This document shows, one piece after another, positions 1 to 60,575 of a stretch of DNA of 64,000 bases (positions within the stretch are counted from its first letter, which is position 1; each line of letters begins with the position of its first letter). The notes below the pieces were generated by a model. It made no database searches, had not been told where the DNA came from, and saw only the letters and a list, made by a program, of their open reading frames with translations. Origin of the DNA: Bolinopsis microptera (lineage: Eukaryota > Ctenophora > Tentaculata > Lobata > Bolinopsidae); assembly GCF_026151205.1 (NCBI RefSeq), contig NC_087077.1, forward strand, positions 12,932,983 through 12,996,982. The letters are read 5' to 3'. The position numbers were made by a program, and so were the translations under genes.

Positions 1-247
1 GAGCATGGCACTTTGAGAAGGAGAACTGCTCAGTATATTGTTTCTTCCAGCACTTGTCCTGTTTCGTAATTGCTCCTCTTCTACGGAATTAATTGTTGAA
101 TTATTTATATAGATTATGGGGCAGTACCTATTGATATATCATGATCTTAATTAAGCTGTATTCAATCAGGAGTGACACAGCCGGTTCAGGCCATGGAATA
201 GGAGAAAGGTCGGATAGATTTAATCGATCTGAATGTCTTCAAATTTC

Positions 248-411
248 TTACTTAAACCATCCCTTGTATTTGCCACAAAGGTCGGGGTATTGCTTCTTGA
301 TGGAGAGATAGTAATCACTCCAAGCCTTCTGGAACATCAGTTTCTCATTGCCCATAGACAGACACTTAGGTGGTGTCCAAGATAGACATTGCTGACACTG
401 CAGCCTGTAAG
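248..411 (-). CDS. C-terminal exon of the giant protein
   Basis: Follows acceptor accctaacag, and ends at TAA (248-250). Encodes [20 protein letters not shown] and a tail with [19 protein letters not shown], a last copy of the YP-containing module. The alternative acceptor 9 nt downstream (cttacag) would put the exon out of frame with exon 527-1675, which fixes the splice choice. No canonical AATAAA was seen on the minus strand before the window edge. Confidence 0.65.
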
Positions 412-3400
412 CTGTTAGGGTGTATGTTAGATAGATGTCCCATCGAAATAACAGAAAAACTGCATTGGTGGAAATTTACGACAAATATTTAATATCATTT
501 ACTTACTTATTTTAATATTTACTTACTTTTCTGCGGGGTTATGTATTGTATAACTTTAGGTTTGCAGCGGATCACTGGAGTATCTGGTGCGTGAGGTTTT
601 GGATGAGTCTTCGGTGGTTTAAATGGAGGAGGAGGGGGAGGAGGTGGTGGTAGAGGAGGTGGTGGTCCACGAGGAGGCGGTGGTCCATGAGGAGGTGGTG
701 GTCCATGAGGAGGCGGTGGTCCATGAGGAGGTGGTGGTCCATGAGGAGGTGGTGGTCCATGAGGAGGTGGTGGTCCATGAGGAGGTGGTGGTCCATGAGG
801 AGGTGGTGGTCCATGAGGAGGTGGTGGTCCATGAGGAGGTGGTGGTCCATGAGGAGGTGGTGGTCCATGAGGGGGTGGTCCTCCATGAGGCGGTGGTCCT
901 CCATGAGGCGGTGGTCCTCCATGGGGTGGTCCTTCATGGGGTGGTCCTTCATGGGGTGGTCCTTTATGAGGTGGTCCTTCATGAGGTGGTCCTTCATGAG
1001 GTGGTCCTCCGTTGGGTGGTCCTCCATGGGGTGGTCCTTCATGAGGTGGTCCTCCGTGGGGTGGTCCTCCATTGGGTGGTCCTCCATGGGGTGGTCCTTC
1101 ATGGGGTGGTCCTCCAAGCCGTGGTCCTTCATGGGGTGGTCCTCCATGGGGCGGTCCTCCATGGGGTGGTCCGCCGTGAGGTGGCCCTTCATGAGGTGGT
1201 CCTTCATGAGGTGGTCCTTCATGAGGTGGTCCTTCATGAGGTGGTCCTCCGTGGGGTGGTCCTCCGTGGGGTGGTCCTCCGTGGGGTGGTCCTCCGTGGG
1301 GTGGTCCTCCGTGGGGTGGTCCTCCGTGGGGTGGTCCTCCGTGGGGTGGTCCTCCGTGGGGTGGTCCTCCGTGGGGTGGTCCTCCATGGGGTAGTCCGCC
1401 GGGAGGTGGCCCGCCATGAGGTGGTCCTCCGTGGGGTGGCCCTTCATGGGGTGGTCCGCTGGGAGGTGGTCCTCCGTGGGGTGGTCCTCCTTTGGGTGGT
1501 CCTCCGTGGGGTGGCCCATCATGGGGTGGTCCTTCGTGTGGAGGCGGACCGGGTCCATCACCGCCCGGTGGTCCACCAGGTCCATCACCGCCCGGTGGTC
1601 CACCAGGTCCATCACCACCTGGTGGTCCACCAGGTCCTTCTGGTCCTTCTGGTCCTCCTTCGGGAGGCTGTAGTCCTGAAATTTGAAGAAGTGTATTTAC
1701 CTTTACCGAGAAATTTCTTGCAATATTATTTTGATTAGCAATAACTTTAGCAACCCTTTTTATAAACGAAAGTTTAGTTCATGAAACTTACCGGCCATTT
1801 CTCTCATTATCTCTTCATCGACCAAATCTGCTTCGTCATCAATATTCGATTCGAACATGCTACCAATGTCAAGGTCTCTCTTGGCAATGTTCAGTAATTG
1901 GGACTGTTGACCAGTAGATTGGAGACGGCATTTTCCCCATGGCAACACAGGGAAGAAACCAGCTGGAATGATATCAGATCATTATATATTATAATCGGAT
2001 TATCAGTTATGTGATCATTAGATATTTGCGTTGATTGATTTAAAATAAAAACGGTTGATCTCGATTGCAATCCTTATTACAATAACATGGTAATATTTCA
2101 GAACAATTTAATAAAATGATGAACTCTAAACAGCGCTTCAAATTTCACATCTTATAAAATTTTAAAAATCTATTAACAAATGCATCAGTAATATTGAAGA
2201 TAATATAATCAATATTCAAATTCAATACCCGGCCGAGGACAAAGATTGTATGTGTAAAGCTTGTGGCAGACTTGGATCTGGGTGCTTCCTATATTATTGC
2301 CGCAATTCCTCGTGAAGCACTTTTTGACCCTCGTAGCACCTTGTAATTATAGGGTGATTAAATTTAAAACTTTAAAAAAGATAAATCAGATCTTTTACGT
2401 TGTGCGCATTCTCACAAAGCTGATATTTTGCGAAAATAGGAACATATTGTGAGTCTACCACTGATTGAGAATTTTTGCAAAACTTAAATTAAACTTATCA
2501 ATTTAAAGGAAGATTAAACATAAGATTACTCACAGCCCTGCACAAAGTGAGATTTGGCGTGGTTACAGGGTACTGTTAACTGTTTTCTAACTTTAGATTC
2601 ACACTGATTCTTTAAACTGTCCGTCAGCACGAACTTAGGAACAACCGTCTTCTTGAAAAGCGCGTATCCTAAAAATTTACAAATCACAATGAGTTGTTTT
2701 ATAAAAATATATTATTGCACAAGAAGCACCGTCTAGCTATAGTCTTAGAGCTCGGTTAATTTGACAGGAAGAAAGATGCTCAGTCATTAATAATAAATAA
2801 AAGTGCTCCGTTGGACTGTTTAACGACTGTCGCGTCGCTCTGCACCGCTAGGTAACCACTGGTAACCTAGGTAACTACTAGGTAACTACTTATAACCACT
2901 TACCAGTAGGTCTGTAAGTGACGTACACCTCGTTACAGTTAGTATAACTGGAGCACATTGTCACCGTGTAGATCATATCGTGAGGTTCGTCTGTTCCCGG
3001 ACAAATCTCCTTCCGGGTTCCTTTTGAAACGGACTTTATCTAGTGGAATATTGAAGTTGATGTTTTGTTCGAATTTGTTTAATATTGAAATAATTTGACT
3101 GTTTCGTCGGGCGTAGAGCACCGCTCAAATAAATTAAAGTGAAAGAATAGCAGTTAACTATATGAAAGCCTAGAAATTCGATTTGTTACAATGCATTGGG
3201 CTTTAATCCGATTAACTTGGGAGCACGTTCGTATGTTCATGTAGCCGACTACAGCTATTCATTCTTTCACTTTAATTTACTTGAGCGGTGCTACAGCTTG
3301 TCTTGCCGGTGATATAAAACCAATTTCGTGACTTTAATCTTTTAATGAAGATGGAGAATAGGGCAATCCTTTTCTTTAATAAAAGTTATTAAAACTGTCA

Positions 3401-6400
3401 TGGGTTCATTAATAAAGAGTTAATAAAGACCTAAAATATAAACATTTTCCATTCACTAACCCTGTATTTGGAGCGAGGTCTGTGTATGTACAAGTACCTC
3501 TGGTCTCGCTTCACCATCGTTAGAGACACCTGCTTTATATCTCCTTTATAGCCAATACCTGTGTTATTTGTGGGTGATTAGAGGGGCAATATGGAATTAA
3601 AGTTTATTTAACGAATATTTTAAACAATTCTGGTTATATTTCATTCATTTAATAAAACAAGAGAAGCGTTTAAGTCAGCATTGGCAAAAAAATGTGAATT
3701 AATCATTAAAAGATTAAATTATAGCATGTATCATACTATGATTTCTCTTGGAGAATTTCTCTTTACACTCTTAACTTGCGAACAAATTGAAGCAGCAGAC
3801 TTTAAGCTAGAAACTTTATTGAATAGAAATAATCATTTCACGTAACTACGTCTTCTTCAGTTCTCAAATTATTTGTTATATAGTAGTGTTGAAAGTATTA
3901 AAACTTGAACTATTTATCATACTATGATCCCTAGGGATAGCACCTGCTATTCAGAATTACTGAGCTAGCCACTTAATTTAACATTGTTAGCAATTGGCCA
4001 ACAATGTGAATTAATCATTAAAAAATGTGAATTAAATGTGATTAAACTAAAGCATTACCTGAGGGGAATTTCCGGGAGATGGTGTTGAAACACCGTCCCT
4101 TCTGGTTGCCAGCTCGACACACTCTGAACAGGTAATGACACCAACATCGCCCACGTGTTGTCGCGCACCGCTCGTCTATCTTCGACACCACGAAGAAGTA
4201 GCGGGGGTCCACGTAACCTGTGTTGGGGAGGTTGTTCTTAATTCTTATTTAAAATCCGGATTGTAATATTATTTTTGAGTCGCATAGTTGAAATGTTTTC
4301 TTGGGTAAATTTTTATTGATCCCGTTTGATGCGACAAGGAAAAGACTCTTATCAGGAATTATTAATTCTTATGTTGTAACTTGAACAAAAACTGAAAAAT
4401 GAATGATATTTCCTGCATAAAAACATTATATTCGTTGACTTACTTAAATCAGTTCTTTCACTGTAAACCACCCTTGTTGTTCCTGAAAAATAATATAATC
4501 ATTTGAAAAACTGTTTTACATGTGTCTATTTTATATTTCAATACGAATAAGATAACAAATGTTTAATTTAAAAAGCAGCTCTGCACACAGGGGGGGGGGG
4601 GGGGTTCACCCTGATTTTTTTGTAAAACTTGGTTTCGAGATAGCAGTTGACCAACAAACTAGGACCAGTGACCAGACTTTTGAGGGGGTCCCGGATCCCA
4701 ACCGCCAAACGGTGCCCGCGGGGCATGGGCAGCCACGCCCATATTTGGTCCATATCAGGCCCAATTTAGCCAAATACCCTGAACATGCCCAAAACACAGA
4801 TTTTAGGTGCTTTACTTGTAGCTAGTGGTCCCCTGAACTCGTATATGAAGTTTCATCAAGATTGGACAAAAAATGACTGAGTTATGAGCTTAAGGGGGCA
4901 TACACCAAAACAGTGGTTTGTGCCGTCCAGACCAAATGACCTCATAGGCAGTTCAGTGACCTTCTAGCGCACCGTTTCAACACCAAAAAAAAATATTTTG
5001 AGAATACCCATTTTTGTAATCGAGCATTTCCTGGTTAGAGTGGAATTTTCGGAAAAACACAATTTGTTTCGTGGAGAGGCTATAAGTTAATCATTTCTTG
5101 CGGTATCGGGTTGAAATTTTGCTCGCCGTCTATTCACATCTATTTCAAGGTGTGTGTAAAATCTTGCTATCGTATCTAAAAAGGCTGGTGTGTTATAAAT
5201 TTTTAAAGTTAACAAAAGTCAAAAAGTTGAAATTGTCCTTTTCAGACTTATTTTAAACAAAAAGTCAGTCAGGGAAGATCGGATTGATTTTATGGTTGAC
5301 ATAAACTTGTTCTCTGAATTCTGGCGCAGTTTTTGATGCCCTCTAAAATGTTTTTCCTCATTTGTGTTCAGATCTATTAGACTTCAAAGCCAAACAACAA
5401 ATTTGGGCACATTTTTCGTTTTAAATATTTACTAATTTTTCTAAAATTTTGATAGGAATGTGCTAGTGACTTTTGGAAGGGTGCAAAATAACTGCAACTA
5501 GCACATTTATATATGAGTTATGAACAACAAAACACCCTAAAATGCTTCCCTTTGAAGTTATTGGAGAAAATGTGATTTTTTATCTGCAAAGCCAAAAAAT
5601 CACATTTTCTCCCATAACTTTAAAGGGAAGCATTTTAGGGTGTTTTGTTGTTCATACCTCATATATAAATGTGCTAGTTGCGGTTATTTTGCGCACTTCA
5701 AAAAGTCACTAGCACATTCCTATCAAAATTTTAGAAAAATCAGTAAATATTTAAAATGAAAAATGTGCCTAAATTTGTTGTTTGGCTTTGAAGTCCAATA
5801 GATCTGAACACAAATGAGGAAAAACATTTTAGAGGGCATCAAAAACTGCGCCAGAATTCAGAGAACAAGTTTATGTCAACCATCAAATCAATCCGATCTT
5901 CCCTGACTGACTTTTTGGTTAAAATAAGTCTGAAAAGGACAATTTCAACTTTTTGACTTTTGTTAACTTTAAAAATTTATAACACACCAGCCTTTTTAGA
6001 TACGATAGCAAGATTTTACACACACCTTGAAATAGATGTGAATAGACGGCGAGCAAAATTTCAACCCGATACCGCAAGAAATGATTAACTTATAGCCTCT
6101 CCACGAAACAAATTGTGTTTTTCCGAAAATTCCACTCTAACCAGGAAATGCTCGATTACAAAAATGGGTATTCTCAAAATATTTTTTTTTGGTGTGGAAA
6201 CGGTGCGCTAGAAGGTCACTGAACTGCCTATGAGGTCATTTGGTCTGGACAGATTTGGTGTATGCCCCCTTAAAACTATATGCCCATATTTGGGCATACG
6301 CACTAAATTTGATCGATTTTGGCCCATAAATTGGTCAAATATCAATATTTTTGAATAAAACTAACTTTATATGAAAGGTAAGCCTAAACTACACATTCTC

Positions 6401-9400: not shown

Positions 9401-12400
9401 TCATACCAGTAGAGCTTGATAATTTATGAATTTTGATTGGAATTAGAAGGCTCCAGTTTGGAAAACAAATTAATATAATTCCGCTCTCAGTTACGCCGAT
9501 GTAGGAAGAAATCCAAAATATCGAAAATATTTCAGATTCAGTGGATTATCAGGATGATCCCCGAGGGACGAGAATGCACCAAAACGTGCCCATCACGACA
9601 AGCCACAGTCCCTCCATCTTCTACTGTCCCACTAACCGTATTGATCTATCAAGACTTCATCCCAAACTTCATGAACTTTACTCCCACATCAAGACCTCAA
9701 ACTTTACCTTACAGCCAAACGAGACTATATTTGAGAACTTTTACATGAACCAGAGGAAAAGTATGCTAATGGATCAGTATGGAAACATGACGTACACGGA
9801 ATTCACTCTAAAGTAAGAAAATTACGAGATCTGGGAAACAAGAACAAATTATTTCAATCGAAAAATTTGATGTCCTTAAAGGTCAAATAAATTCTCGTTT
9901 CAGAAAAGTAATCAACCTAATCATTATTCGTTGTTTTATCGCCTAAAGGATATCAGAATAATAAAACCATGTAATTTTCTGTCATAGAATGTTGTAAAAC
10001 ATTCATTAACAGGTACAGCAGTCTAAACGAAGAGACCTTGAAGAAAACACACTGCTACATAGGGTACGAACTGACAGGAAACTCTAACTACACCTGTAAC
10101 TCTGATATAAAGCTCGTTCTTACAGAGCGAGGAGTTTGTTATCAGGTGAACGCTGAGAGGAGGATTCCACTGGAGGAGGGCTCGCTCGGAGCTATTAACC
10201 TCCTGACTATCCTAGATCTCAGCAAGTCTCTGAGGGTGGATCTGGAGAACGGGTTAGAGGTCTTCATCAAGGATCAGGGTTCTTTTCCAAACAGGTAAAA
10301 AGGAATTTCTTTAAAAAATTACGGTGGAAATGGTAAAAAGCTGTTTCATGTACACTGTTTTACTCTGAAGACGACATCTCCACACTTATCTAATTAATGA
10401 TTCCATTTCTACTAACTGACATGATTAATTCTAAAACAGGTTCGACAAAGGTGACGTATTGACTCCAGGCCTGGTACACACAATGAAAATGTCAGTGGAA
10501 GAAGTAACAGCCCTGCCAGTCCGAGACAGAAAGACAGTCTGCTACCCTAACACCTCACCAGGGGACTTTTACCCTGTTCCTTTCTACGGACCTCCAGAGA
10601 CGTGCAGTTACGCCTGCTACGCCTCTAACGCTCTGGTGTACATTAACAACACCTACGGTTGCATAGACGTCCCCAACAACTACAGTCAAGGTACGAGACT
10701 CTGTACTTTAAAAGAGCTGGAGGATTTAGTGGATTTCTCCACGGAGATACCTCTTAGTTTGGAAAGTAAACGACTCATTGACAGCCAAATCAAAGAAAAG
10801 GTTTCGTCTGGCTGTCTACCATCCTGCAGGGGTAAATATTACCACGCGGAGATACATTCCACCCCGATATATCCCTTGGCAATGAAAATGGCAGCCGTAT
10901 ATTTCAACGTCTCAGTGGATGAAGCCCGGTCCAGTTTAATCGGAATTCGTGTGGTGTTTCCGAGCACGATGAAAGTTGTGGAGGAAATAAGAACTTACAC
11001 TATTAACAATTACTTGGGTGATGTCGGGGGTGTGTTTGGGCTATTTTTGGGGTTCAGCTTCTTTACGTTCCTCGAGTACATCTACTTCGTTCTCTTTTAT
11101 GTGACGAAACGGTTGTGGAAGGGGTTAAAAGGTGATTGGTTGAAAAACTTAGATAACATTAATAGTGGGAAGATGAACAGTTGTGGAGTTGTTGAAAGTA
11201 ATCTCCGACAAAGGTCAACATCCTACATCTCAACTTGTTAGAGGATCTCAGACAGGGTCAACATCCTACATCTCAACTTGTTAGAGGATATCAGACTGGG
11301 TCAACATCCTACATCTCAACTTGTTAGAGGATATCAGACTGGGTCAACATCCTACATCTCAACTTGTTAGAGGATCCCAGACAGGGTCAACATCCTACAT
11401 CTCAACTTGTTAGAGGATCCCAGACAGGGTCAACATCCTACATCTCAACTTGTTAGAGGATATCAGACTGGGTCAACATCCTACATCTCAACTTGTTAGA
11501 GGATCCCAGACAGGGTCAACATCCTACATCTCAACTTGTTAGAGGATATCAGACTGGGTCAACATCCTACATCTCAACTTGTTAGAGGATCCCAGACTGG
11601 GTCAACATCCTACATATCAACTTGTAAGAGAATCTCAGACAGGGTCAACATCCTACATCTCAACTTGTTAGTGGAGTTGTTGAAAGTAATCTCCGACAAA
11701 GGTCAACATCCTACATCTCAACTTGTTAGAAGATATCAGACTGGGTCAACATACTATATCTCAACTTTTTAGAAAATGCCAGACATTGGTTAACATCCTA
11801 CATCTCAATTTGGATGTCTCGGGATTTAGGAGAACTTCTAACAGAGGTCTCGACCAATTTTGTTAACAAACTTCCAGCTAAATTGAATGTCAGTATGCTG
11901 TAGGCCAAAGGTTCCTCTAGGTCCTAGGACCATAAAAGGAGTTTTATGCTGCTGATTTATGCTATCAGCGCTATTGAAAAGTTAGAAGAATTACATATAA
12001 AAGAGATCGTTATAAATGGTTTTTGGTAATATATAAAATATAGACTCCCTTAAAGGATCTATTTTTACTCGCACTATAGAGAGCTAATTGTTTTATCTAT
12101 TGAGTCACCGTAACTTTATTATCATATATCATAGAGCGTTATTTCAAAATATCACTGTCTGTTCAGAGGTTTGCACCCCTTTATTTAACTAACCTGTTCT
12201 GCTGGCGAGGAAGGTGTGCTTTACTAACTGTTTCACGTTGTTCTTGTTGCAGTGAGTGGGAGCTGCAACATGTTGAATGATGACATTTCCATTTGAAGGT
12301 TGTCAAATGTTAATCACCGAATGATTTACAAGTGTTGTTACAAACTACTATTGGTAGTATCACTAAATTGTTCTGTAACCGCCCAGATCTTGTCTGCGTT

Positions 12401-15400: not shown

Positions 15401-18400
15401 GTTGACAGGTTGTATAGGAATACACACACGTGCACTGCCTCTTTGCTATTCGGCAGCTCTTGGTCACACCGGAGGTTATCTTCCAGCTTCCAGTAAGATA
15501 ACCTAGGTTTTATTCATTTTTTATTTTGTTATAAAAGCTTCCATTCACGGGATAGCCAGTTACCTGGCAACGCCCGCTCATGGTGCTTCCCCAAGCTCAC
15601 ACAAGTGTCAGCAAGGAGGAAGATATCCATGCATTTCTGCACGGGGAGCCTATCACAGCTACCAACAATTAATAAGATAACCTAGGTTTTATTCCATGAA
15701 ATTAGTTATCTGGATTATGTTGATCACAATAATAATGCTCTCATGGCTATCATCAAGTATGATTTCAAGAACTTACTTATTTGAGATACTGAAATATTCT
15801 TTGAATTGTAGGTGAAATGGTCCCAAAAGTGAATACAAATTTCCATAATATTAAATAAAATCAAATAATGAAGTTAATGATTTACTTGAAGGTATCCTGC
15901 GTACGTACAAGGTGCTGCATTTATCTGAAAAACAATCAGAAGTTAACGTTCGGGATAGCGTGAATAACCAATAACCAGGGTGTGAGCCTCTAAGTCCCTT
16001 CTCTTAGATTTATTTTATCGTATATTCTTCGAGACTCCAATTTATAACACTCGCACACGAAGTGCCACTACCGATGTCTCATGTTTGAGGGTTTTACCAG
16101 TGCCTCCAAAATCCGAACACGTGCCTACTTTGTTTACGTCATAGTTAGTATCGTAACCCGATTGAGCTTTCGTAAACCTAATTTGCAACTACATAACATG
16201 ATGTTGATGTTAAGGACTTGGCTACAGACGATATGTACTTCGGATCACAGCTTTATATTTAACCATATGATATAACTGCACTTAAAATCTGTCTTGAGTC
16301 TGTTATACTTACCAAGTTATATATGCGTATGCCGTATTATTATATTATATATCGAATAAAATTTGCTGTAAATTATTAGTTAAATACCCACATATTTATA
16401 GGAATATACGTCTGAGCTGTGGCAATCATTGAGGTCATAATATAACATCGGTATGTTTCTCGAGTCAAATATCCGTAGAATACGACAATTGCCACCCAGT
16501 ACTTTAACTTTAAAGAGACGGACCTGTCTAAATCTAGGAATTATAGAACAAAATCTAACGCCTCAATCTTGATGGGGAGTACAGCTTCCATTACAATCTT
16601 CTCAATCGTCTGCAGCTGAAGGTTCATTTACGCCTAATTGCTGTACTGTCTCGAGCAATGATTTTTACCGATATCTAATTCAAATTATAGCGTTTATTAT
16701 ACGTTATTTACACTATATACCCGCACGTGAAGCTCCCTTGTTAACTTACTCTGAATCAAGTATTTTATTATTGACGGAGAATTGTGAATTGTCATTTGAT
16801 TTTTCTCACTGTGGAGATCGAATTTCTTTTACAACCACGATGGCATGGAGATTTAAGGTAATCAGGGTTGAACAATCAAAATGAATTATAACCGATCTGT
16901 TCCAGTGCTCTTTACTTAATTATCGCCAATCGTGTTTGGACTGGTGTTAGTTACAAACCGACATCTTGTTGCCACTAACCTCTGTGCTGTTTTTCGCATA
17001 CTTTAACAGCATAATTCACCATTTGGGCGTTCTTCGGACATTTTGCAGCCTCTGAAAGGAATGATATATTTAGTTCATTTGTATTCTCCTATTTCTATTT
17101 ACCCTTACTTGGCATTCACGATTGACATTAAATGCACTTTTGCTGTCTCTAAGAAAATAATGATATATTTAGATCATTTGTGTCATATGCTTCTCCTATT
17201 TCTTTCCCTTATATTTGGCAGAGTTCACAATCGACAATAAATTATGAGCTTACTCAGGGGAAGTTTCTTTATCCTGCAAACGGTCACTTTCGTCATTTCT
17301 GAAATACAATTTATAGGCTAACATTATAGTCAGACATCAGATTTATATTATAATACATAGTATTAACATTAATTAATTGATTAAGTATTATTTATTGACA
17401 GAACTACGTCAACCGTCTTGTAGATTATTCTTCAGAATACAATCTGTAGTCACGTGATCATTGGTGCAATTATAAGTCTCGGTTTGCTGTCCTTTAATCA
17501 TAATATTGGGTCTTCTGCATATTAATATTCTGCAAATCATAACAATTGCTAGGTTGATATTTTCAATCTAATAATGGTTCCAGCTGCGTCGTTTCGGCTT
17601 GATGGTTTATTTAGTGGATCTTAACGGATAAGCTGAGTTTATTTTAAACTTTAAAACTTCATTTTTGATAATTTAAAACATCTTCTTTCTTACCTCCTGA
17701 TATCGCATATTTGTTCATAGGGTATTTGACGGCCATATCGAAAGGCTCGAGCATGTAGTTGGAAATGCCTGCGGAGTAGATGTAACTCTCGCTGCTCCTC
17801 TCCGCATATACAACTGGCGGCATCTTCACCTTGTACTCTGTAAAGAAACATTGTGTCGCAATTTTAGGTGTAAAATACAAGATTCTTACACAGTTACACG
17901 TACATGGTGTTTTAAGCAAATCAAGCAAGAGATTTTGTCAAGTCTAAGAAATCACGATTAATTTAAACTGGTTGATGGTTATGATGCTTCGTGAATTATG
18001 AAAAAAAACCTCGAAAAGAAGAGGACCAAGACTATTATGCTAATAACATTTAGGCTATAACATTTTAAACTAACTGCAACACTACAAATCTATTACATTT
18101 ATTGAGAATTATGTAATATAACGCGGTGGAAATATTTTAAACGGGCATATCCTGTCCAAACCCAAGATGCACTACATGAAGAATTCGTTGTAACTTTGTT
18201 TGAAAAGCATTAATATTAATAATTGAATAATAATTTAAATATTACTTGGTGGTGGGTAAGCCGTGACCCAAACTTGACAGCTCTTTAGATTATTCTTACA
18301 AAGCTTGTACCGGTACGTTCCACCCTTAATCTTCACAGCCTTGCCGTATATAACGTAGACAATGAAATCATATTTATTCGTCATGTACTGTGGATGATGA

Positions 18401-21400
18401 CGGACCATCATGTCGGAGATGTTATCACGTGACCCTTTGTACTTCAGATCTGAGAGTTAAATTAGAGTTAAAATAATTTGAGCGAGCAGCAGTGGATTGT
18501 GGAAAAGATTTATCTGTCGATTTTCTAGTAGATTGCGCAATTGCCACGTCAGTAATCAGTTGAGGAATGATTAATATGTCTGCCGTCAGAAGTCAGTGAA
18601 ATTGTTGATTCTTAGCTTACCCATGGGGAACTCTCTTGACCTGGTCACGTAACACTCAGATAACTTGCCAGTGCGGCACGATCGGAATGTATAAAAGCAA
18701 ACAGTCCTGAACTTCGGTTTTTCTTTTTTGCCTTTCTTCGCATTGCTGTGAAGTCGCTGTTTCTGGCAAACTTTCCTGATTTCTGAGAAGAATGTTTTTA
18801 TTTTATACTTCATGCATTTTTTAACAGCGACTGCTAGGAAATTACAGTAGACCGATTTTGTATTTTTTACAGGGATCCAGTAAATTTTGTACAAGGCTCA
18901 AACCCGATTTGATATCAGGAAATTTCTTAGAAATGACAAGAACTAACCTGAAGTAACCATGAACTGATTCCTTGGCTGAAGGTGTGAGTAGGGCATTGCT
19001 AGAGAATACACAGTCACTTTCTTCCCTTTTACCAAAACAAGTTTATAGTATTGTCGAATGTTCTTCTTGTCACAGTTTGTTTTCTTCGTGATGGGTTTAC
19101 CCTCACAGACTTTCTCCGGACCAGACACTCCTGTTTGGGCAGGAATTTAGTTTTAAACATATTGAGAACTTCTCCACAGAGTTTTCCAAAATGGGTGCAA
19201 CCGGAACTTTTAAATAAAACTTAATCTTGAAATGCAAGTGCAGAACTGTTTGGAGGAAAAATCAGGAGAAGAAATTTTAGAAATTTTGTAACTTACGCTC
19301 GAGTTTCCATCCAGGGTATTTATCTCGAACTTGTCTCCATTTTAAGATCTGTACGGTGGAAGTGTAGGGATATCCCTCCAATGTCTGTTTGTAGTAAATC
19401 TTAGGAAACTCCTTGTAACCGCTCGGCAAATACCTAAGGAAGGGGCAGTTTTGATAATCGAACAATAGTTGACGTCACATCAACTACAGACTCGGTGACC
19501 ATTGCTCGGTTGTAATATCTGGTAATGGTAATAGCAGCTCGATATAATGAAGCTGACAACACTTAAAGCCAGTATCCATGATGTTACTTCAAAAGCAAAT
19601 TTCTCCGACGAACAATAGTAAAGTGCTCATTATTTCCCCGCTGCCAGCCATCAAAGATACATGCTCTGGTCAAAAGATTTTCTCGCTATAAATATTGGGT
19701 TTCTTTAAATTCCCAATATTTATAGTAAGTACTATTTATAGGGTTTAAATACCCAATGTTTATAGTAAATACTATTTATAGAGTTGCTAATTACTATATC
19801 ATCGAAAATTTGGTAGGATTCAGAAATTGACGAATCGGTAAATCAATCGAATCGATTCGGTGATTTTGTGATATCTGTGTTCTGTTCGACAAAATAATGG
19901 AATATGCGTCTGACGTACTATAATAGTAATAATTACTATGTAGCATCGTAGTGACCCTTCCCAGCCGTCATTGAATAAGCCTTGTACTAAACATGCAGTG
20001 CTGTCACTTATTTTTGCGACTATCCGGTCGAAGAGAGCAAACAGCAATAAAACACAAACTAGTTTATCCCTACGCAGAAGCAGAACAGATTAAAATTAAA
20101 TTGCGGAATCGTACGCCAGAAGAAAATTTAATCCTTCTCAACCGAATCAGTTTAAACCGTATACACTGACCTGGTTTTGATGGTTTGGCAGACCAGCTTG
20201 TTGCTCGCCATGCACAGTTTAAACTGGTAAAACTGTTTAACATGTGTAGGTTTCTGAACCATTCTCCAGTCAGCCTGCTTGTACTTCAAGTGGAGATATA
20301 CTATATCCCACTGTATCATCAGTTCCGACACCATTCTCACATCCCCTGAGAATCGTTAGAAGTTACAAATCTGCTATTTTTCATATCTAATTCATTTTCA
20401 ACATCTATTAATATTGTGCATATGTAACATGAAAATAACTTTAAGACTTCAGTTGATCGTTTGATTGAGCACTGTAAGTTTTGAAGAATTTAACTTTACT
20501 CATTGCATTTTACAACTGCAAGTGTCTCCTACCTGCAAAGATCATTCCGCGAGGGAAGGGTCCGCTAACAGATCGAGCACAATGCTTCTTTGATATGTCA
20601 CATACATCAAACAAGAACCTGAAAATTCACACTTGATCAAAAGTATGTAGAATCGGACAAAAATGCTGGCAATTTTTAGGCTGCTGCCTCGTTATTTGGT
20701 ATTTTGATGAACTCACTTCATTTCCCCTAGCTATTGTATCGAGGCCTATCAGAACTAAAAAGTGAGCATGTAACCTGCATGAGTTCCCATCCCCGCCAGC
20801 CTTCTTGCACCTCCTCACAATAGCGCTAGTGATTCTGTAGTTAGCACGTGGGCGGAAGTAAGGGTACGGGATCACTGTCAGGTAGAACACGCGTGTCTTG
20901 TGGGCTTTAGTGTGGGAGAATGTTACTTTGTAGTACGACATTCTCTGTGCTTTGGGGCAACTTCGCTTCTCTGGGGGCAGATATGATAGATTTATGGGTT
21001 GAAAAGTACTTTCTAAAACATAAGAAGAAAGAAAAAAGATTGTTGTTTGGATCATGAATATAGTTATACTACGACTAGGAATTCGAACATTGTCTGTGTC
21101 ACTCTTAATTAAGATTTATTCTAACTTGTGTTAGCCCGTCCTTTGCAGAGCGTTATTTGACTGTAAGACTTCATGGACCACAATTGTGGCTTAAGCACTC
21201 TCAACGCCTGAAAAGTGAAAACATTATACATATGCTCAGTTCACATTTGAGATATAAAAAATCATCAAGCCATCACAATGTCTAAATAGTTATTTTTATG
21301 GAAATTTCAAAGGGTGAACATGAATATAAAACATAAGTCCTAACCCTGGTCGATGGCAGCATTTTCAAGCCATAACTCCAGCGATACCCTTCAGTAGTAA

Positions 21401-24400
21401 CCCATATTATCGGTTTCTTTTCCCACAAGGTATACTCTCTGCAATTGTACGATCATTTAAACATTGCATAATACTAAAATGACATAATATTTAACATATA
21501 ACCTCTAAACTTTATAAATAGTAAATCATATAAATCATAAATAGAATGATCTCATACCGGAACAGTCTGAATGCGAACCAGTCAGCAGCACCAGTCATTT
21601 GTACTCGTGTAATCTGCTTAAGAGGGATCCTGTACTTATAGGACCTTCGCGTTATCAAAATACCATTCACCTGATATATGAGCCATATTTATATGACAGC
21701 TTTGAAGGTTTTTTCAAAATCTCATAGTCTCTCTGTATCAAACTATGTGTTTAACATACATATTACATAGAATATAGATGGATATCAATTATTCAAATTA
21801 TGAATGCGGCAAAAGTTTCGAATATATCTCAAATGTAGCTATCATACCACAACTGTGAAGCCTTTACGGTGGGCAACGATGGCGATAGTAAAGGTGCCAG
21901 GTCCATGGGGTCCATGTGGTCCTCCAGGTCCTCCAGGTCCATCAGGTCCTCCAGGTCCATCAGGTCCTCCAGGTCCATCAGGTCCATCAGGTCCTCCAGG
22001 TCCATCAGGTCCTCCAGGTCCATCAGGTCCATCAGGTCCTCCAGGTCCATCAGGTCCTCCAGGTCCTCCAGGTCCTCCAGGTCCTCCAGGTCCATCAGGT
22101 CCTTCAGGTCCTCCAGGTCCTCCAGGTCCTCCAGGTCCATCAGGTCCTCCAGGTCCTCCAGGTCCATCAGGTCCACCTGGTCCATGACGTCCACGGTGTC
22201 CACGGTGCCCTCGGTGTCCACGGTTTCCACGGTGTCCACGGTGTCCACGGTGTCCACGGTGTCCACGGTGTCCACGGTGTCCTCGGTGTCCACGGTGTCC
22301 ACGTCGCCCATGACGTCCATGTCGCCCACGGTGTCCATGACGTCCATGTCGCCCATGACGTCCATGACGTCCATGTCGCCCATGACGTCCATGACGTCCA
22401 TGTCGCCCATGATGTCCTCTAGGTCCACCAGGTCCGCCAGGTCCCCCAGGTCCACCTGGTCCACCCGGACCTTCAGGGCCTCCCCGATGGAAGGGCCACC
22501 GCCTCGATATCACTTCATGTCCCCACCCCCCTCGTTTAGTGTTCATCACTATCTTGCCATCACCCGCTGGTCTGAAGTCCAGGTGAAACGCTATCTGCAA
22601 ATAATTCAGGGCATTTATAATTTATCGTAATAATAGCATCACAACCTCAAGTTCCTCATGTTATTTTAGCGCTATCCAAATGAGGAAACAACTATAAAGA
22701 TAATATAGATATGATGAATCTAATAATCCTAATAACGGATGTAATAATCTTAAATAAAAAGCAATATCATTGACTCTTACATTTCCATTATTAGTGATAA
22801 GATTGACTGTGAACTTTTTCTTCCTATCTTTAGCCACACCCGAGATGATAATGACATCAAAAGGCCTGACTCCTCCGGACAAACCGTATATCTTTGCACC
22901 AACGATCATGCGATAGTTTGTCACTGAGGTACTGCTATTAGGTCACATAATTACAGCGTTAGCATCAACCACAGTCTTGTTAAAGGAAACTTGGTATGTT
23001 ATATTTGATGCAGTAGTTATTGGGTCCACCAATCAGCAAGCCTGTCTAGACCCACTATTTAAACTGAATCTTAAATATCTCATAATATCATTACTTTATC
23101 CTGATTTTGACCTTTGCAAACCCTCCACCCCATCCGTCACTTTACAAAAGGTTATTGTGCAGAAATTACTCTACCGTAAGTTCTTCTACAACCCCTCCCC
23201 TCTTAGACTCGCTTACGCAATGAGTGAACGACCCCCAAATTAGCATTATAAAAGCCACTTTTGGAACTGAACCCTGGTTAACCAATATCCAAATCCTACT
23301 CAGTCACTGAGACTACAATTCAATAAATCCACTTTTTTAAACTGAATCTTAAAAAGTACAATCATATATAATTATCAATTACCTGAAGATCTGAAGTGTC
23401 TGAACTGCTTCACAATTCCACCACGATCTATACCTCTGAACTCGTACCCGGTTAATGTTTTAAGGTCCACTTTGTGGGGGAAAGGGTGGTACATTAAACC
23501 GTTGATCGTTACAAAGTATCCTTGAGGGGCTACCTGCAAGGCGAGGTTCGTTAACTTATTACTAACCTTGTTTTGTTTAATCCAGTACTATGGCGGATAG
23601 ATAGTTCTTTTCTTACATTAGAGTTTATTAATATCAGTTGTTTTGAAGGATAATTTCAAGGTTTTGTTGGTTCACTTTGGAGTTGGACTTTTAAATTTTG
23701 TGACCATTGTCACTTACTTCAATGAGGACAGTGAAGCGGCCTTTGATTCCGGGTGGAGGGAAGGGGGCGTCTGATTTTGATATCACATGGTCTCCTTTTA
23801 GTGCTGTCATCATGAACTTCTTCCTTCTTCCACTGAAACAATATAAAAAAATCAAACTTTAAGATCCCTTTTTCCACTTCCATGTTTATAATCAAAGCTC
23901 CCATCAGGGGTTTAGTAGAATTTAATTAAAACAATCACGACTTAAATTCTTACCCCGTGAAAGTAAGCCTGAGAGCTTCAGTTCCGTGTCCAACAATTGT
24001 AAAGATCATTTCCCCATGTTCCAGAAACTGCCCAACAAAGTAGAGGGTATCTCCAAACATAAGTCCAGCCTCAAACTTGTAGGACTGGTTTAGGATCCCA
24101 TTTCTCCTCTGATCTGAAGGGTTTCAATGCAGCTCATTTGCAGAAATAAAATGACAACCATTGTTATACCAGGAACATCTAAACCTGATTTGAAACCTTC
24201 AAAATTAAAGAAATAGGCCCCTTCCTATTTCTCACGAACACTCAATCCAGTAGCATAATTTCTTCAAATATTGTTCCCTAGGCCCCGTTAATATAAAGTG
24301 ACCATGACCCCTTGTATTTGAAGAGTAACGCAAAAAAATACTCACACATTTTGTATTTGTTAGTGTATGTGAACACTTTTGTCAAAGATTTCCAGTCTTT

Positions 24401-25866
24401 TGAATGAGGATCGACTGAAATGTTTGAAAACTGTTAACTGAACATCAGTTTTTATCGATAGTAATTCGATCACGATGATATTGACAATTTGTGTGGAAAG
24501 ATACAACTATATTTAACAAACCAGGTAGGTAAGGAGGAGGAGGGGGTGGTCCTTCTTGAGGTGGTCCTTCATGGGGTGGTCCTTCATGGGGTGGTCCTTC
24601 ATGGGGTGGTCCTTCATGGGGTGGTCCTTCATGGGGTGGTCCTTCATGGGGTGGTCCTTCATGGGGTGGTCCTTCATGGGGTGGTCCTTCATGGGGTGGT
24701 CCTTCATGGGGTGGTCCTTCATGGGGTGGTCCTTCATTGGGTGGTCCTTTATGGGGTGGTCCTTCGTGGGGTGGTCCTTCGTGGGGTGGTCCTTCGTGGG
24801 GTGGTCCTTCGTGGGGTGGTCCTTCGTGGGGTGGTCCTTCGTGGGGTGGTCCTTCGTGGGGTGGTCCTTCGTGAGGAGGTCCTTCGTGAGGTGGTCCTTC
24901 GTGAGGTGGTCCTTCGTGAGGTGGTCCTTCGTGAGGAGGTCCTTCGTGAGGTGGTCCTTCGTGGGGTGGTCCTTCATGGGGTGGTCCTTCATGGGGTGGT
25001 CCTTCATGGGGTGGTCCTTCATGGGGTGGTCCTCTGTGAGGTGGTTCAGGCTTAGGCTGCGGTGCTGGTGCTGGTTCTCCTCCTCCACCAGGTGGTCCGT
25101 CTCCGCCACCAGGTGGTCCGTCTCCGCCACCAGGTGGTCCATCTCCGCCACCATGTTCACCACCGCCTGGGCCGTCGCCTCCAGGCCCATCTTCTGGTGG
25201 TTGAAAATCTGAGGCGACAATAAATTCGTCAAATTCTAATAGTTAAGTTACTCGAAAAGAGATTTATAAACACATTTTTCGTACCAATGACCATGAACTC
25301 CAGTTAGTAAATAGACAAAGTGTTCGTTATCTATGATTTTCCCTTTACTTTAGGTTCCTTAATGTCATACACGGCAACAAGAGAGAGGCTAATTTAAGCC
25401 TGGAAAACATTTACCGTCATACCTCTTTTTTCAAGAACAACCAGATCATCGTTCTCCCAGGACAGACCCGGCGCGGGCTCTATATTCAATACATCAGCAG
25501 TTAATAGATCTGGATAAAAGGGTTTTGTGAATAGATAATCGGGGATCAAGTTCATGAGGTCATTAATAAAATCGTTTTTTAATTTTAAATCAAAATCAAA
25601 GTTGGTACAAACCTTCATCAGTTAAACTTATTGCATCAGAGGCAACGATACACGGCACAAGTAAGAGTCTGAAAGAGAAAAATAAGTATGAAACTCATAA
25701 TTATGTAAATTGGCAATAATCCTTGCACCATGGTCAGCAATTGATTTAATGATTTCTTAATGCTTGCAAATATTTGTACTTACCTTGAATATACTTAAAA
25801 ATTATATGAATTAACTCACATTAAAAAAGTTGTAGAAATATGAGGTGAAATATTGAGCTTGAACAT
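248..25866 (-). CDS. Giant secreted galectin / Gly-X-Y / Pro-His-Gly repeat protein, 37 predicted exons, 2219 aa
   Basis: Predicted extracellular protein; exact role unknown. Threaded exons (minus strand, listed 5' to 3'): 25866-25820, 25668-25613, 25509-25423, 25208-24522, 24414-24346, 24113-23954, 23832-23718, 23533-23383, 22923-22781, 22594-21848, 21670-21558, 21438-21345, 21207-21126, 21012-20775, 20618-20533, 20345-20171, 19433-19297, 19130-18948, 18833-18621, 18449-18246, 17837-17694, 17051-16980, 15924-15886, 15502-15359, 15172-15065, 13842-13708, 13147-12998, 12559-12521, 12262-12194, 4482-4444, 4217-4059, 3529-3461, 2990-2904, 2668-2534, 1962-1792, 1675-527, 411-248. They sum to 6660 nt with a terminal TAA. 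Order: signal peptide (start [10 protein letters not shown]), PPHEG repeats (aa 64-292), galectin-like domain 1 (about 300-457), galectin domain 2 (458-823) with a collagen-like insert (544-738), Cys/Lys/Tyr modules (about 824-1782), Pro/His/Gly repeats (1783-2165), C-terminus. Every junction is GT-AG; 27 of 36 introns are phase 1. The weakest calls are exons 3529-3461 and 12559-12521 and the 21126/21012 junction. Confidence 0.72.
527..1675 (-). CDS. Pro/His/Gly repeat exon of the giant protein
   Basis: A 1149-nt (383-codon) exon between acceptor caaatttcag and donor gtaagtaaat, phase 1 to 1. It starts with [17 protein letters not shown] and GGDGPGGPP repeats, runs through about 44 pentapeptides PPHGG or PPHEG, shifts to about a dozen hexapeptides PPPPHG, and ends with [19 protein letters not shown] and [16 protein letters not shown]. 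Composition and internal design match exon 25208-24522 near the N-terminus, so the two probably share an origin by duplication within the gene. Alternative open frames read [10 protein letters not shown] or GWSSV repeats; they are minisatellite shadows. Confidence 0.75.
650..1548. repeat. Coding minisatellite, 15-bp and 18-bp units
   Basis: About 893-1548 is built from 15-bp units such as ggtggtcctccgtgg, ggtggtccttcatgg and ggtggtcctccatgg. About 650-892 is built from 18-bp units ccatgaggaggtggtggt, which encode PPPPHG on the minus strand. Both belong to exon 527-1675. The change of unit length without loss of frame (15 to 18, both multiples of 3) indicates selection for the reading frame. 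Confidence 0.9.
1792..4482 (-). CDS. Cys/Lys/Tyr module region of the giant protein (part 2)
   Basis: Exons 4482-4444, 4217-4059, 3529-3461, 2990-2904, 2668-2534 and 1962-1792, all phase 1 to phase 1. They continue the module type: [39 protein letters not shown] and [17 protein letters not shown]. The last exon changes to an acidic segment ([17 protein letters not shown]) before the Pro/His/Gly exon. A 7.7-kb intron, holding the DEG/ENaC gene and a fold-back element, separates this block from part 1. Exon 3529-3461 is the least certain: its frame and phases fit but it lacks cysteines. Confidence 0.55.
4590..6708. mobile_element. Poly-G-bounded fold-back element
   Basis: Starts with a run of G followed by ttcaccctgatttttt (4590-4620) and ends with the inverted form aatcagggtgaa plus a C run (6675-6708). 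The interior holds AT-rich sequence with gcccatatttgg-type motifs and a second, TTAA-flanked palindromic element (4894-6269). It sits in the 7.7-kb intron of the giant gene, next to exon 4482-4444. Non-autonomous: no transposase reading frame seen. Confidence 0.65.
4890..6273. mobile_element. TTAA-flanked palindromic element, copy 1
   Basis: TTAA, then GGGGGCATACACCAAA..., a near-perfect inverted repeat of about 690-bp arms with its centre near 5590 (tttttatctgcaaagccaaa), then ...GGTGTATGCCCCC and TTAA. A TTAA target duplication is the signature of piggyBac-type transposition, so this is probably a non-autonomous member of that class. No protein-coding frame is present. Nearly identical to copy 2 at 40110-41458. 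Confidence 0.75.
7760..7905. repeat. CACGTG-containing tandem repeat
   Basis: Seven or so degenerate units of about 16-21 bp (gcgcacgtgtgccatat with optional gata) each holding the palindrome CACGTG. Located in the large intron of the giant gene, upstream of the DEG/ENaC gene. CACGTG is an E-box core, so a cluster could bind bHLH factors, but this may be a simple satellite. Confidence 0.8.
9163..11241 (+). CDS. DEG/ENaC (ASIC/degenerin-like) sodium channel, 4 exons, 521 aa
   Basis: Trimeric, amiloride-sensitive-type cation channel of the plasma membrane; ligand unknown. Exons 9163-9367, 9536-9812, 10013-10294 and 10440-11241 join in phase (1, 2, 2) to 1566 nt. Seen: cytoplasmic N-terminus with the family HG motif (THGVKL, residues 35-36), TM1 about 49-65 ([13 protein letters not shown]), a large extracellular region with paired cysteines and N-glycosylation sequons, then pre-TM2/TM2 at about 448-480 ([18 protein letters not shown]) containing the G-x-S selectivity motif as GFS (459-461). 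Length is normal for the family. The gene lies in a large intron of the minus-strand giant galectin gene. Its last codons (SYISTC) and stop fall in the first unit of a 43-bp satellite, so the C-terminus may be recently remodelled. Confidence 0.88.
11205..11800. repeat. 43-bp tandem satellite after the channel gene
   Basis: About 12 copies of a 43-bp unit containing gggtcaacatcctacatctc and aacttgttagaggat, starting inside the last exon of the DEG/ENaC gene. Variants alternate cagacaggg/cagactggg and gatctc/gatatc/gatccc. One later unit (11671-11720) repeats the gene sequence gtggagttgttgaaagtaat, so part of the terminal exon was copied into the array. Confidence 0.9.
12194..21012 (-). CDS. 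Cys/Lys/Tyr module region of the giant protein (part 1)
   Basis: Sixteen predicted exons from 21012-20775 to 12262-12194. No known domain was recognised, but the segments resemble one another: a lysine/tyrosine strand, a Cys pair and a Y/V-rich strand, for example [39 protein letters not shown] and [19 protein letters not shown]. These alternate with segments holding a YP motif such as [25 protein letters not shown] and [14 protein letters not shown]. Exon lengths are mostly multiples of three. From exon 19433-19297 onward every intron is phase 1. This suggests an extracellular module amplified by exon duplication. It may be a lineage-specific fold. Confidence 0.6.
15480..15700. repeat. Duplicated splice-acceptor segment
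   Basis: The 22-bp string taagataacctaggttttat occurs at the acceptor of exon 15502-15359 and again about 180 bp upstream in its intron (near 15675). On the minus strand both contain the acceptor-like aacctag followed by GTTATCTTA, so the upstream copy could act as an alternative acceptor. Confidence 0.6.
21115..21126 (-). terminator. Possible internal stop plus polyadenylation signal in the giant gene
   Basis: On the minus strand the sequence after exon 21207-21126 reads TAG directly followed by AATAAA (21120-21115). If the donor at 21125 (gttaga) is not used, translation would end after ...CKGRANTS and the transcript could be cleaved here, giving a short protein of about 850 residues with only the repeat and galectin domains. 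Confidence 0.4.
21345..22923 (-). CDS. Galectin domain 2 carrying a collagen-like loop insertion
   Basis: Exons 22923-22781, 22594-21848, 21670-21558 and part of 21438-21345. The read-through shows [51 protein letters not shown], then WPFHRG, a 195-residue insert, and [19 protein letters not shown], ending [10 protein letters not shown]. This aligns in order with canonical galectin strands. Contact residues are largely kept: H-x-D-x-R (Asp replaces the usual Asn), then N, W and E of the V-x-N...W-G-x-E motif. It may therefore be an active carbohydrate-binding domain. The insert falls exactly in the loop of the normal PF-x-x-G-x-x-F motif. Confidence 0.75.
21896..22480 (-). repeat. 65 Gly-X-Y triplets inside a galectin domain
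   Basis: Within exon 22594-21848 the coding frame carries 195 residues with Gly at every third place: GPE/GPG/GPD triplets at both ends and a central Arg/His block of GRH, GHR, GRR and one GNR triplets. The phase of Gly never slips, even where the block changes from GRH to GHR. Pro is mostly in the X position and Y is Gly, Asp, Glu, His or Arg, so hydroxyproline in Y would be rare. The length (585 nt) is a whole number of triplets and keeps the galectin frame open on both sides. Confidence 0.85.
23383..24414 (-). CDS. Galectin-like domain 1 (degenerate) of the giant protein
   Basis: Exons 24414-24346, 24113-23954, 23832-23718 and 23533-23383. The protein shows the strand order of a galectin fold: [20 protein letters not shown], then [11 protein letters not shown] and LRLTFTG, then [35 protein letters not shown] and LKTLTGYEF. 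The PF-x-PG-x-F-x-V block followed by V-x-I-N-G and a closing L-x-G strand is the galectin hallmark. The sugar-contact H-x-N-x-R and W-G-x-E positions are not recognisable, so this copy probably does not bind galactosides in the canonical way. Assignment rests on pattern reading only; a profile search against the galectin family would decide. Confidence 0.6.
24522..25208 (-). CDS. (PPHEG)n repeat exon of the giant galectin protein
   Basis: A single 687-nt exon bounded by acceptor cctcag and donor gtttgt, phase 1 at both ends. In the only frame joining both neighbours it reads GDGPPGG-type repeats (four copies), a short [10 protein letters not shown] linker, about 30 pentapeptides PPHEG with rare PPNEG or PPHKG, then a [14 protein letters not shown] end. 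Other frames also stay open because the array is a perfect 15-bp minisatellite, but only this one agrees with flanking splice phases and with the biased Pro/Gly composition seen in exon 527-1675. Pro-His-Gly pentapeptides recall the histidine-rich region of vertebrate histidine-rich glycoprotein, which binds zinc; relatedness is not claimed. Confidence 0.75.
24543..25035. repeat. 15-bp coding minisatellite (PPHEG array)
   Basis: About 30 tandem copies of ggtggtccttcatgg on the plus strand (CCA CCC CAT GAA GGA on the coding strand). Variants cluster: an outer block with cat, an inner block with cgt (both His codons, CAT or CAC), and a sub-block with gtgagg instead of gtgggg. The clustering indicates expansion by unequal exchange. 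Third-position changes are mostly silent, as expected under protein-level constraint. Confidence 0.9.
25613..25866 (-). CDS. Signal-peptide exons of the giant galectin protein
   Basis: Exon 1 (25866-25820) begins with ATG and ends TTAAT before the donor gtgagt (phase 2). Exon 2 (25668-25613) follows the acceptor ttctctttcag. Together they give a start of [15 protein letters not shown] followed by [13 protein letters not shown]: a hydrophobic core and a small-residue cleavage site near residue 27, typical of a secreted protein. Only one frame of exon 2 is open, and it needs a phase-2 donor upstream, which is what exon 1 supplies. Exon 1 is short, so another upstream start remains possible. Confidence 0.65.
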
Positions 25867-60570: not shown

Positions 60571-60575
60571 GGTCT

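What the first reader, a model, noticed from the sequence alone, without database searches (positions are those of the whole stretch)
248..25866. A 37-exon frame for a giant galectin / histidine-proline-glycine extracellular protein
All exons chain without a stop, with correct phase at 36 junctions and a total length divisible by three, which is unlikely by chance. The design (signal peptide, PPHEG array, two lectin domains, collagen tract, about 20 small Cys/Lys/Tyr exons, [11 protein letters not shown] array) matches no family I know. It reads like an extracellular structural, mucus or adhesive protein and may be specific to the lineage.
Basis: partly seen in the sequence, partly recalled or inferred. 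Interest (0 to 1): 0.88.

Follow-up and report, generated by a model that had tools for sequence, protein, structure and literature searches.

The report
Giant comb-jelly lectin-collagen secreted protein
A comb jelly chromosome appears to encode one enormous secreted protein that joins a sugar-binding domain split by a collagen-like rod, two histidine-proline arms and about two dozen unknown cysteine-rich modules, a plausible but untested building block of a glue, mucus or matrix.

Summary
The exon chain is real, but the window holds only about 60% of the modelled protein. On the minus strand I chain 41 in-window exons (reader: 37, list not given); the chain runs past the window edge to a stop near -49.76 kb: 66 exons, 3,757 aa, no internal stop. 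Chain scores in five regions far exceed three controls. One gene is likelier than several: long introns cut cysteine units, and genome-wide single-exon searches link the sections weakly but consistently. The genome is a ctenophore's, probably Bolinopsis microptera.

Architecture: putative signal peptide; PPHEG arm; degenerate galectin; a clear galectin whose loop carries 65 Gly-X-Y triplets; Cys/Lys/Tyr array; [11 protein letters not shown] arm; second array; C-terminal domain. Cys units and C-terminal domain pass no Pfam cut-off; the latter has no PDB match and four database relatives, organisms unnamed.

Best reading: a secreted, multivalent, cross-linkable fibre protein of glue, mucus or matrix. 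No cDNA or expression evidence; cell type unknown.

The parts
25820..25866 (-). exon 1, ATG and start of putative signal peptide ([15 protein letters not shown])
   Evidence: by eye, no signal-peptide predictor available
25613..25668 (-). exon 2, rest of hydrophobic segment ([13 protein letters not shown]...)
25423..25509 (-). exon 3, linker
24522..25208 (-). exon 4, GGD/PPGGGD start then 31 PPH.G units (29 PPHEG)
   Evidence: Pfam Extensin_1 81 bits, below its cut-off of 105, probably by composition
23383..24414 (-). exons 5-8 (24414-24346, 24113-23954, 23832-23718, 23533-23383): degenerate galectin-like domain
   Evidence: PF00337 17.4 bits, cut-off 22.1, only profile 83-123; best PDB match a galectin at E 0.52
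21558..22923 (-). exons 9-11 (22923-22781, 22594-21848, 21670-21558): galectin CRD, split by the collagen-like tract inside exon 10
   Evidence: 73.5 bits with the tract left out; galectin-9 E 1.4e-20; exon 10 alone matches profile 44-82 in its first 39 residues (17.2 bits)
21848..22594 (-). exon 10: contains 65 uninterrupted Gly-X-Y triplets (GPG 23, GHR 12, GRH 11, GPD 11, others 8)
   Evidence: (Collagen 31.7 bits, cut-off 27.2)
21126..21438 (-). exons 12-13 (21438-21345, 21207-21126): linker
16980..21012 (-). exons 14-24, first Cys/Lys/Tyr array (21012-20775, 20618-20533, 20345-20171, 19433-19297, 19130-18948, 18782-18621, 18449-18246, 17837-17694, 17491-17414, 17298-17254, 17051-16980)
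   Evidence: repeat relation of exon 14 and exon 18, 34% identity but only E 0.83 genome-wide
12194..15924 (-). exons 25-32, first array continued (15924-15909, 15658-15564, 15502-15359, 15172-15065, 13842-13708, 13147-12998, 12559-12521, 12262-12194); exons 25-26 uncertain
2229..4482 (-). exons 33-38, first array continued after a 7.7-kb intron (4482-4444, 4217-4059, 3558-3461, 3039-2904, 2668-2534, 2339-2229)
1792..1962 (-). exon 39, linker, acidic in its second half
527..1675 (-). exon 40, second His-Pro-Gly arm: 37 PPH.G and 10 PPPPHG
252..411 (-). exon 41, first half-unit (C..C..W..P.C...CGKYKGW) of the second Cys array
1..80 (-). exon 42 (80 to -35), crosses the window edge; exons 43-66 follow outside, to the stop codon at -49755 to -49757 (C6:12883225-12883227). 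Alternative end: a stop just after exon 65 if exon 66 is not spliced on

Best explanation
One giant ctenophore gene, 75.6 kb with 66 modelled exons, encodes a secreted fibre-like protein of about 3,760 residues. Shown by sequence: one galectin domain that keeps 5 of 7 classical sugar-contact residues and carries a 65-triplet collagen-like insert; two proline-histidine-glycine arms; two basic Cys/Tyr/Lys arrays with about two dozen hairpin units (21 by motif); a C-terminal domain with four known relatives. Inferred: secretion (signal peptide by eye); the Gly-X-Y insert lets three chains bundle, so several lectin heads point outward and bind glycans of mucus, cells or prey with avidity; the His-Pro arms are stiff, extended and metal- or pH-responsive, giving reversible cross-links; the disulphide-rich, Lys/Tyr-rich arrays give extensible cohesion and contact with surfaces. 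The product would be stored in secretory granules and released as a cohesive glue, mucus or fibrous matrix.
For: Exon chain well above controls and open over 66 exons. Galectin-2: PF00337 73.5 bits, PDB galectin-9 E 1.4e-20, with H, R, N, W and E kept, N to D and R to I (read from the alignment; residue roles recalled). Collagen over its cut-off. 21 hairpin motifs in 2,898 letters without the three low-complexity exons, against a mean of 3.48 and a maximum of 9 in 500 shuffles. Single gene: exon 43 as query finds 3 places in the 264-Mb genome, itself and two more on the same strand at this locus (-44.4 kb, E 0.010; -12.5 kb, E 0.30); exon 53 finds itself, two more here (E 0.0046 and 0.02) and one elsewhere (E 0.011, three stops in frame). 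In profile order the half-unit missing after -13.3 kb is the one that opens the array at -43.2 kb. P0004, a database relative, carries sequence like exon 64 (by eye) and exon 65 in one frame. Basic: K+R 543, D+E 286. Precedents: galectin as proposed cross-linker of a frog glue (PMC11237159, passages); collagen-like tract, lectin and often a Lys-rich tail in nematogalectin (PMC4195985, passages).
Against: No transcript or protein evidence; splice junctions are modelled and some are doubtful. 23 of 65 triplets are GPG, with no residue in position Y that could be hydroxylated, so a stable triple helix is not assured. Galectin-1 looks degenerate. Searches with 1,481 aa of the far part and 491 aa of the near part found no homologue, though length limits and exon-sized database proteins weaken that. 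The cross-matches between sections are individually weak, and one hit of similar E-value lies elsewhere. The study of colloblast candidates reports no enrichment for low-complexity regions (PMC6278862, passages). The structure model is unusable (mean pLDDT 36.1).
Confidence: 0.55

Rival explanations
1. Two or three neighbouring genes: a lectin gene (window 25.9-12 kb or to 252) and one or two separate Cys-array genes to the left.
For: Introns of 7.7, 10.0 and 29.9 kb in the model, two of them holding opposite-strand genes (amiloride-sensitive channel; 7TM/LDL-A receptor). My gene finder models internal exons only, so it could not have shown a start or terminal exon in the gaps; it placed 5 low-scoring minus-strand exons in the 30-kb gap, unlike the array. 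No cDNA.
Against: Half-units are split across the 10-kb and 30-kb introns in profile order and, by eye only, across the 7.7-kb intron; phases match. Exon queries cross-match between sections, weakly. By eye, -13.08 to -14.42 kb shows no exon like the missing half-unit.
Confidence: 0.25
2. A structural protein of the mesoglea or basal matrix, not an adhesive or mucus component.
For: Collagen-like tract, Cys-rich modules and large size suit matrix as well as glue.
Against: Basic Lys/Tyr-rich composition and His-Pro arms are more typical of cured or glue-like secretions (general knowledge); not tested.
Confidence: 0.3
3. A mucus-borne immune lectin that agglutinates microbes.
For: Galectin domain; collagen-bundled lectin heads are a known immune design (collectins, recalled).
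Against: Most of the protein (two arrays, 2,197 aa; two arms, 612 aa) is not of a kind I know from immune lectins (recalled; I ran no search for immune counterparts).
Confidence: 0.1
4. Decaying or artefactual chain of spurious exons.
For: Some exons are weak and phase was a selection criterion.
Against: Controls; C-terminal exon conserved at 80% identity over 99% in a relative; 66 exons with no stop.
Confidence: 0.03

Closest known systems
Nematogalectin (Cnidaria)
   Same: Secreted; collagen-like GXY tract; sugar-binding lectin domain; often a Lys-rich basic tail (PMC4195985 passages)
   Different: Its gal-lectin domain follows the tract and is, as I recall, of another lectin family (SUEL type); here an S-type galectin is interrupted by the tract. 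No His-Pro arms or Cys array in the passages read. Likeness of design, not membership
Tandem-repeat galectins (galectin-9, galectin-4)
   Same: Two CRDs in a row (recalled); galectin-9 is the best PDB match of CRD 2
   Different: CRD 1 degenerate, CRD 2 interrupted, and thousands of extra residues
Galectin-3
   Same: Pro/Gly-rich collagen-like tract together with a CRD (recalled)
   Different: There the tract precedes the CRD (recalled); here it lies inside it
Frog glue PRIT plus galectin
   Same: A galectin as proposed cohesive cross-linker of a secreted glue (PMC11237159, abstract and passages)
   Different: Two separate proteins; here lectin and fibre would be one chain
Extensins and histidine-rich glycoprotein
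   Same: Pro-rich and His-Pro repeats (the latter recalled); Extensin_1 profile 81 bits on exon 4
   Different: Below the Pfam cut-off; likeness probably by composition only

Membership tests
Galectin (PF00337) | Profile match over the cut-off | tested here: met
   CRD 2 with the tract left out 73.5 bits against 22.1. CRD 1 fails at 17.4, and exon 10 alone at 17.2
Galectin (PF00337) | Classical sugar-contact residues H, N, R, N, W, E, R (recalled) | tested here: inconclusive
   CRD 2 keeps H, R, N, W, E; first N is D and last R is I (read from the alignment)
Galectin (PF00337) | Binds beta-galactosides | not testable with these tools
   needs recombinant CRD
Collagen-like domain | Uninterrupted Gly-X-Y, profile over the cut-off | tested here: met
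   65 triplets; 31.7 bits against 27.2
Collagen-like domain | Stable triple helix | not testable with these tools
   23 of 65 triplets are GPG
Nematogalectin | Signal peptide, collagen-like domain, then gal-lectin domain | tested here: not met
   order differs, tract inside an S-type galectin; definition from PMC4195985 passages
Extensin_1 (PF02095) | Score over the cut-off | tested here: not met
   81 bits against 105
Any Pfam family, for Cys units | Profile match over a cut-off | tested here: not met
   9 pieces: nothing at E up to 1 in 7 (6, 1); DUF7644 E 0.074, 13.9 bits against 27 in one; SPATA1_C E 0.12, 12.8 against 27.8 in one
Any solved structure, for Cys units | Sequence match in PDB | not tested
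   no PDB search was run with the Cys units
DUF642-like jelly roll, for the C-terminal domain (resemblance recalled) | Profile match | tested here: not met
   no Pfam family at E up to 1 for the exon or up to 10 for 3 relatives; no PDB match at E up to 10

The most novel reading that the evidence does not exclude
The gene encodes a core protein of the colloblast glue, a single chain that ctenophores evolved independently of cnidarian nematogalectin but with the same logic (collagen-bundled lectin heads on a basic tail), plus a cysteine module of a fold not yet catalogued. It would be a direct molecular handle on how the ctenophore-specific adhesive works.
Probability: 0.2. Interest if true: 0.85.

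Novelty: new variant of a known kind. Interest (0 to 1): 0.6.

Why it matters
The study of colloblast genes speaks of 'an undescribed biological adhesive' (PMC6278862, passages). A single giant candidate with unmistakable peptide signatures ([16 protein letters not shown]) could be checked at once in tentacle transcriptomes and proteomes. A galectin domain with a collagen-like rod in its loop is a design that I know from no other protein (recalled), and the Cys unit and C-terminal domain look like new families.

Tried and rejected
Paralogue elsewhere: exon 53 gave one weak hit away from the locus (E 0.011) with three stops in its frame; the surrounding stretch, part of it withheld, showed no array in what could be read, so I dropped it. 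Structure: one model, mean pLDDT 36.1, best 10-residue block 58; a beta-meander is suggested over the Cys hairpin but I do not use it. Homology by long spliced queries: nothing (593 candidates,412 candidates); the single C-terminal exon found four (163 candidates). Literature, listings of titles and abstract starts only, open-licence library: ctenophore/colloblast/galectin/adhesive (20 of 2,400 listed), galectin/collagen-like/histidine-rich and others (15 of 27), ctenophore tentacle and single-cell terms (15 of 144), ctenophore with extracellular matrix, galectin and Mnemiopsis (4 of 4), the pentapeptides (15 of 32; listed titles look unrelated). None of the listed titles or abstract starts describes such a protein; unlisted papers were not seen. 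First gene-finder output had a wrong print frame and was replaced. My profiles H1 and H2 were built from many of the exons that they then find, so their bit scores are not independent; I use only the order, and they do not find the 12-21 kb units well (best 14.5 bits). One search also slid 9.65-kb windows over both strands of the region: other windows, many of them holding other genes, also score high, so a high score marks coding sequence, not this gene in particular. Taxon: iGluR L036 has best PDB hit Mnemiopsis ML032222a, 407.5 bits, next kainate receptors at 243.4; another copy, L038, scored best with kainate receptors (195.4) and next with ML032222a (181.6), which does not single out a ctenophore.

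Full report
WHERE. The window is G000:C6:12932983-12996982 of a 264,652,675-base assembly in 232 contigs; the hits lie on contigs numbered 1 to 13 only. An iGluR from it matches Mnemiopsis leidyi ML032222a with 407.5 bits, far ahead of kainate receptors at 243.4; a second copy was less telling. Bolinopsis microptera is tabulated at 265 Mb, 13 chromosomes, GC 38.5% (PMC11797021, passages). I take it as a ctenophore, probably B. microptera; the scaffold count in that table, 346, does not agree. Coordinates below 1 lie to the left of the window (C6 position = 12932982 + coordinate).

OBSERVATION. A simple gene finder (codon bias trained on six other open frames of the region; generic splice matrices; internal exons only) gives a strong minus-strand chain. 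Best-chain scores in five regions without the low-complexity exons were 80.7, 26.2, 34.5, 35.0 and 89.5 bits on the minus strand; the plus strand gave 1.4, 0.0, -0.2, 8.0 and 10.6; the reversed sequence 1.7, 2.0, 0.2, 0.8 and 1.2; 20 Markov simulations each had maxima 16.8, 7.3, 13.4, 4.8 and 11.2. Adding exons that the matrices score low but that fit the repeat by eye, I get 41 in-window exons, ATG 25866 to 252, with AG/GT at every internal boundary and no stop. The chain continues to a stop at -49755: 66 exons, 3,757 aa, 65 junctions of which 44 are phase 1, 11 phase 0 and 10 phase 2. A first joining left a frame break after exon 44, resolved by taking the donor that the finder had preferred. 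Several exons were chosen among alternatives, and phase was a criterion, so the number of exons is approximate. The end is also uncertain: without exon 66 the frame stops just after exon 65, and P0001 ends there, as an unspliced reading would.

ONE GENE OR SEVERAL. Introns over 2 kb are 7,711, 9,958 and 29,870 bases. The first holds an amiloride-sensitive-channel exon on the other strand (67.6 bits), the third a 7TM receptor with LDL-A repeats and a second, interrupted copy. The second and third cut a Cys unit by profile order; the first does so by eye. A genome-wide search with exon 43 alone returns 3 places, all here: itself, -44.4 kb (E 0.010) and -12.5 kb (E 0.30). Exon 53 alone returns 4: itself, -46.6 kb (E 0.0046), -13.2 kb (E 0.02) and one elsewhere (E 0.011). 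Exon 14 returns itself and exon 18 (E 0.83). Each match is weak, but 5 of the 6 non-self hits of these three searches fall within this 75 kb of a 264-Mb genome. Only the best candidates are scored by that tool. I put one gene at about 0.75.

DOMAINS. Signal peptide by eye. Exon 4: 31 PPH.G units. Exons 5-8: weak galectin (17.4 bits, below cut-off). Exons 9-11: galectin at 73.5 bits when the tract is left out; galectin-9 E 1.4e-20. Exon 10 alone matches galectin profile positions 44-82 in its first 39 residues and then passes into 65 Gly-X-Y triplets that score over the Collagen cut-off; the galectin resumes with [20 protein letters not shown]. So the rod grows out of the loop after the WG.E strand. 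The two best other galectin frames in this genome (43.6 and 42.3 bits, 37 and 36% identity) align over about as many codons as query residues, without such an insert. Exons 14-38 and 41-64: 986 and 1,211 aa with 49 and 69 Cys; hairpin motif 21 times against 3.48 on average and 9 at most in 500 shuffles; by eye about two dozen units. Exon 40: second arm. Exons 65-66: C-terminal domain.

RELATIVES. The C-terminal exon finds 4 proteins in a database of 5.8 billion: 98, 80, 81 and 57% identical over 100, 99, 58 and 47% of the query; organisms are not named, so that they are ctenophores is inference. P0004 reads through the exon 64/65 boundary in one frame (the exon 64 part compared by eye), which supports that junction, though it departs from the model further on. 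The same exon occurs once in the genome. Longer spliced queries found nothing. No Pfam match over a cut-off for 9 Cys-array pieces or the C-terminal domain, no PDB match for the latter; the Cys units were not searched against PDB. The one structure model is unusable.

MECHANISM. Shown: domains, charge, repeat content. Inferred: secretion, trimerisation through the Gly-X-Y rod, avidity of clustered CRDs, metal or pH cross-links through His-Pro arms, cohesion through disulphide and Lys/Tyr-rich modules. Glue or mucus and matrix are hard to separate from sequence; I lean to a released secretion. The frog-glue galectin (PMC11237159, abstract and passages) and nematogalectin (PMC4195985, passages) are analogies of working, not relatives.

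AGAINST. No expression data; colloblast candidates in Mnemiopsis were not enriched in low-complexity regions (PMC6278862, passages), although lectin is among their over-represented terms in the same text; GPG triplets are poor helix formers (general knowledge); CRD 1 is degenerate; exon uncertainties as listed.

NOVELTY. The parts are of known kinds apart from the Cys unit and the C-terminal domain; the combination, and the interrupted galectin, I know from no described protein, and the listings show none.

Noticed in passing
window 9505-11238 (+): Exons of an amiloride-sensitive sodium channel (DEG/ENaC; 67.6 bits for 10435-11238) nested in the 7.7-kb intron; a 43-bp minisatellite from 11201 overlaps the end of its frame.
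   Followed up: partly
L009 1873-5697 (+) and left-flank coordinates -18197 to -14367 (+): Tandem pair of large LDL-A/7TM receptor genes: the first is open over 1,275 codons, the second, alike by eye, is interrupted by stops, so it looks like a recent decayed copy.
   Followed up: partly
window 26730-28049 (-): Reverse transcriptase fragment (RVT_1, 68 bits) just upstream of the first exon.
   Followed up: partly
window 54891-57557 (+): 889-codon open frame of Cys-rich repeats with four Pfam matches (FnI_RECK, VWF-like, Pacifastin, VWC), all below their cut-offs.
   Followed up: partly
window 60558-63414 (+): Ankyrin-repeat frame followed by coiled-coil-like frames (by eye; one search gave only a sub-threshold match).
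   Followed up: partly
window 44417-46083 (-): PDZ domain exon (46.3 bits) and a long Ser/Gln-rich repetitive frame with SQRDL-like repeats (by eye).
   Followed up: partly
P0004: A relative at 57% identity that leaves the alignment after IIIKEIGTQV, possibly an intron read through.
   Followed up: no
genome-wide: 30 exon-level galectin matches in this genome (a lower bound), among them a 745-codon open frame with three CRD matches and a 956-codon frame with one.
   Followed up: no
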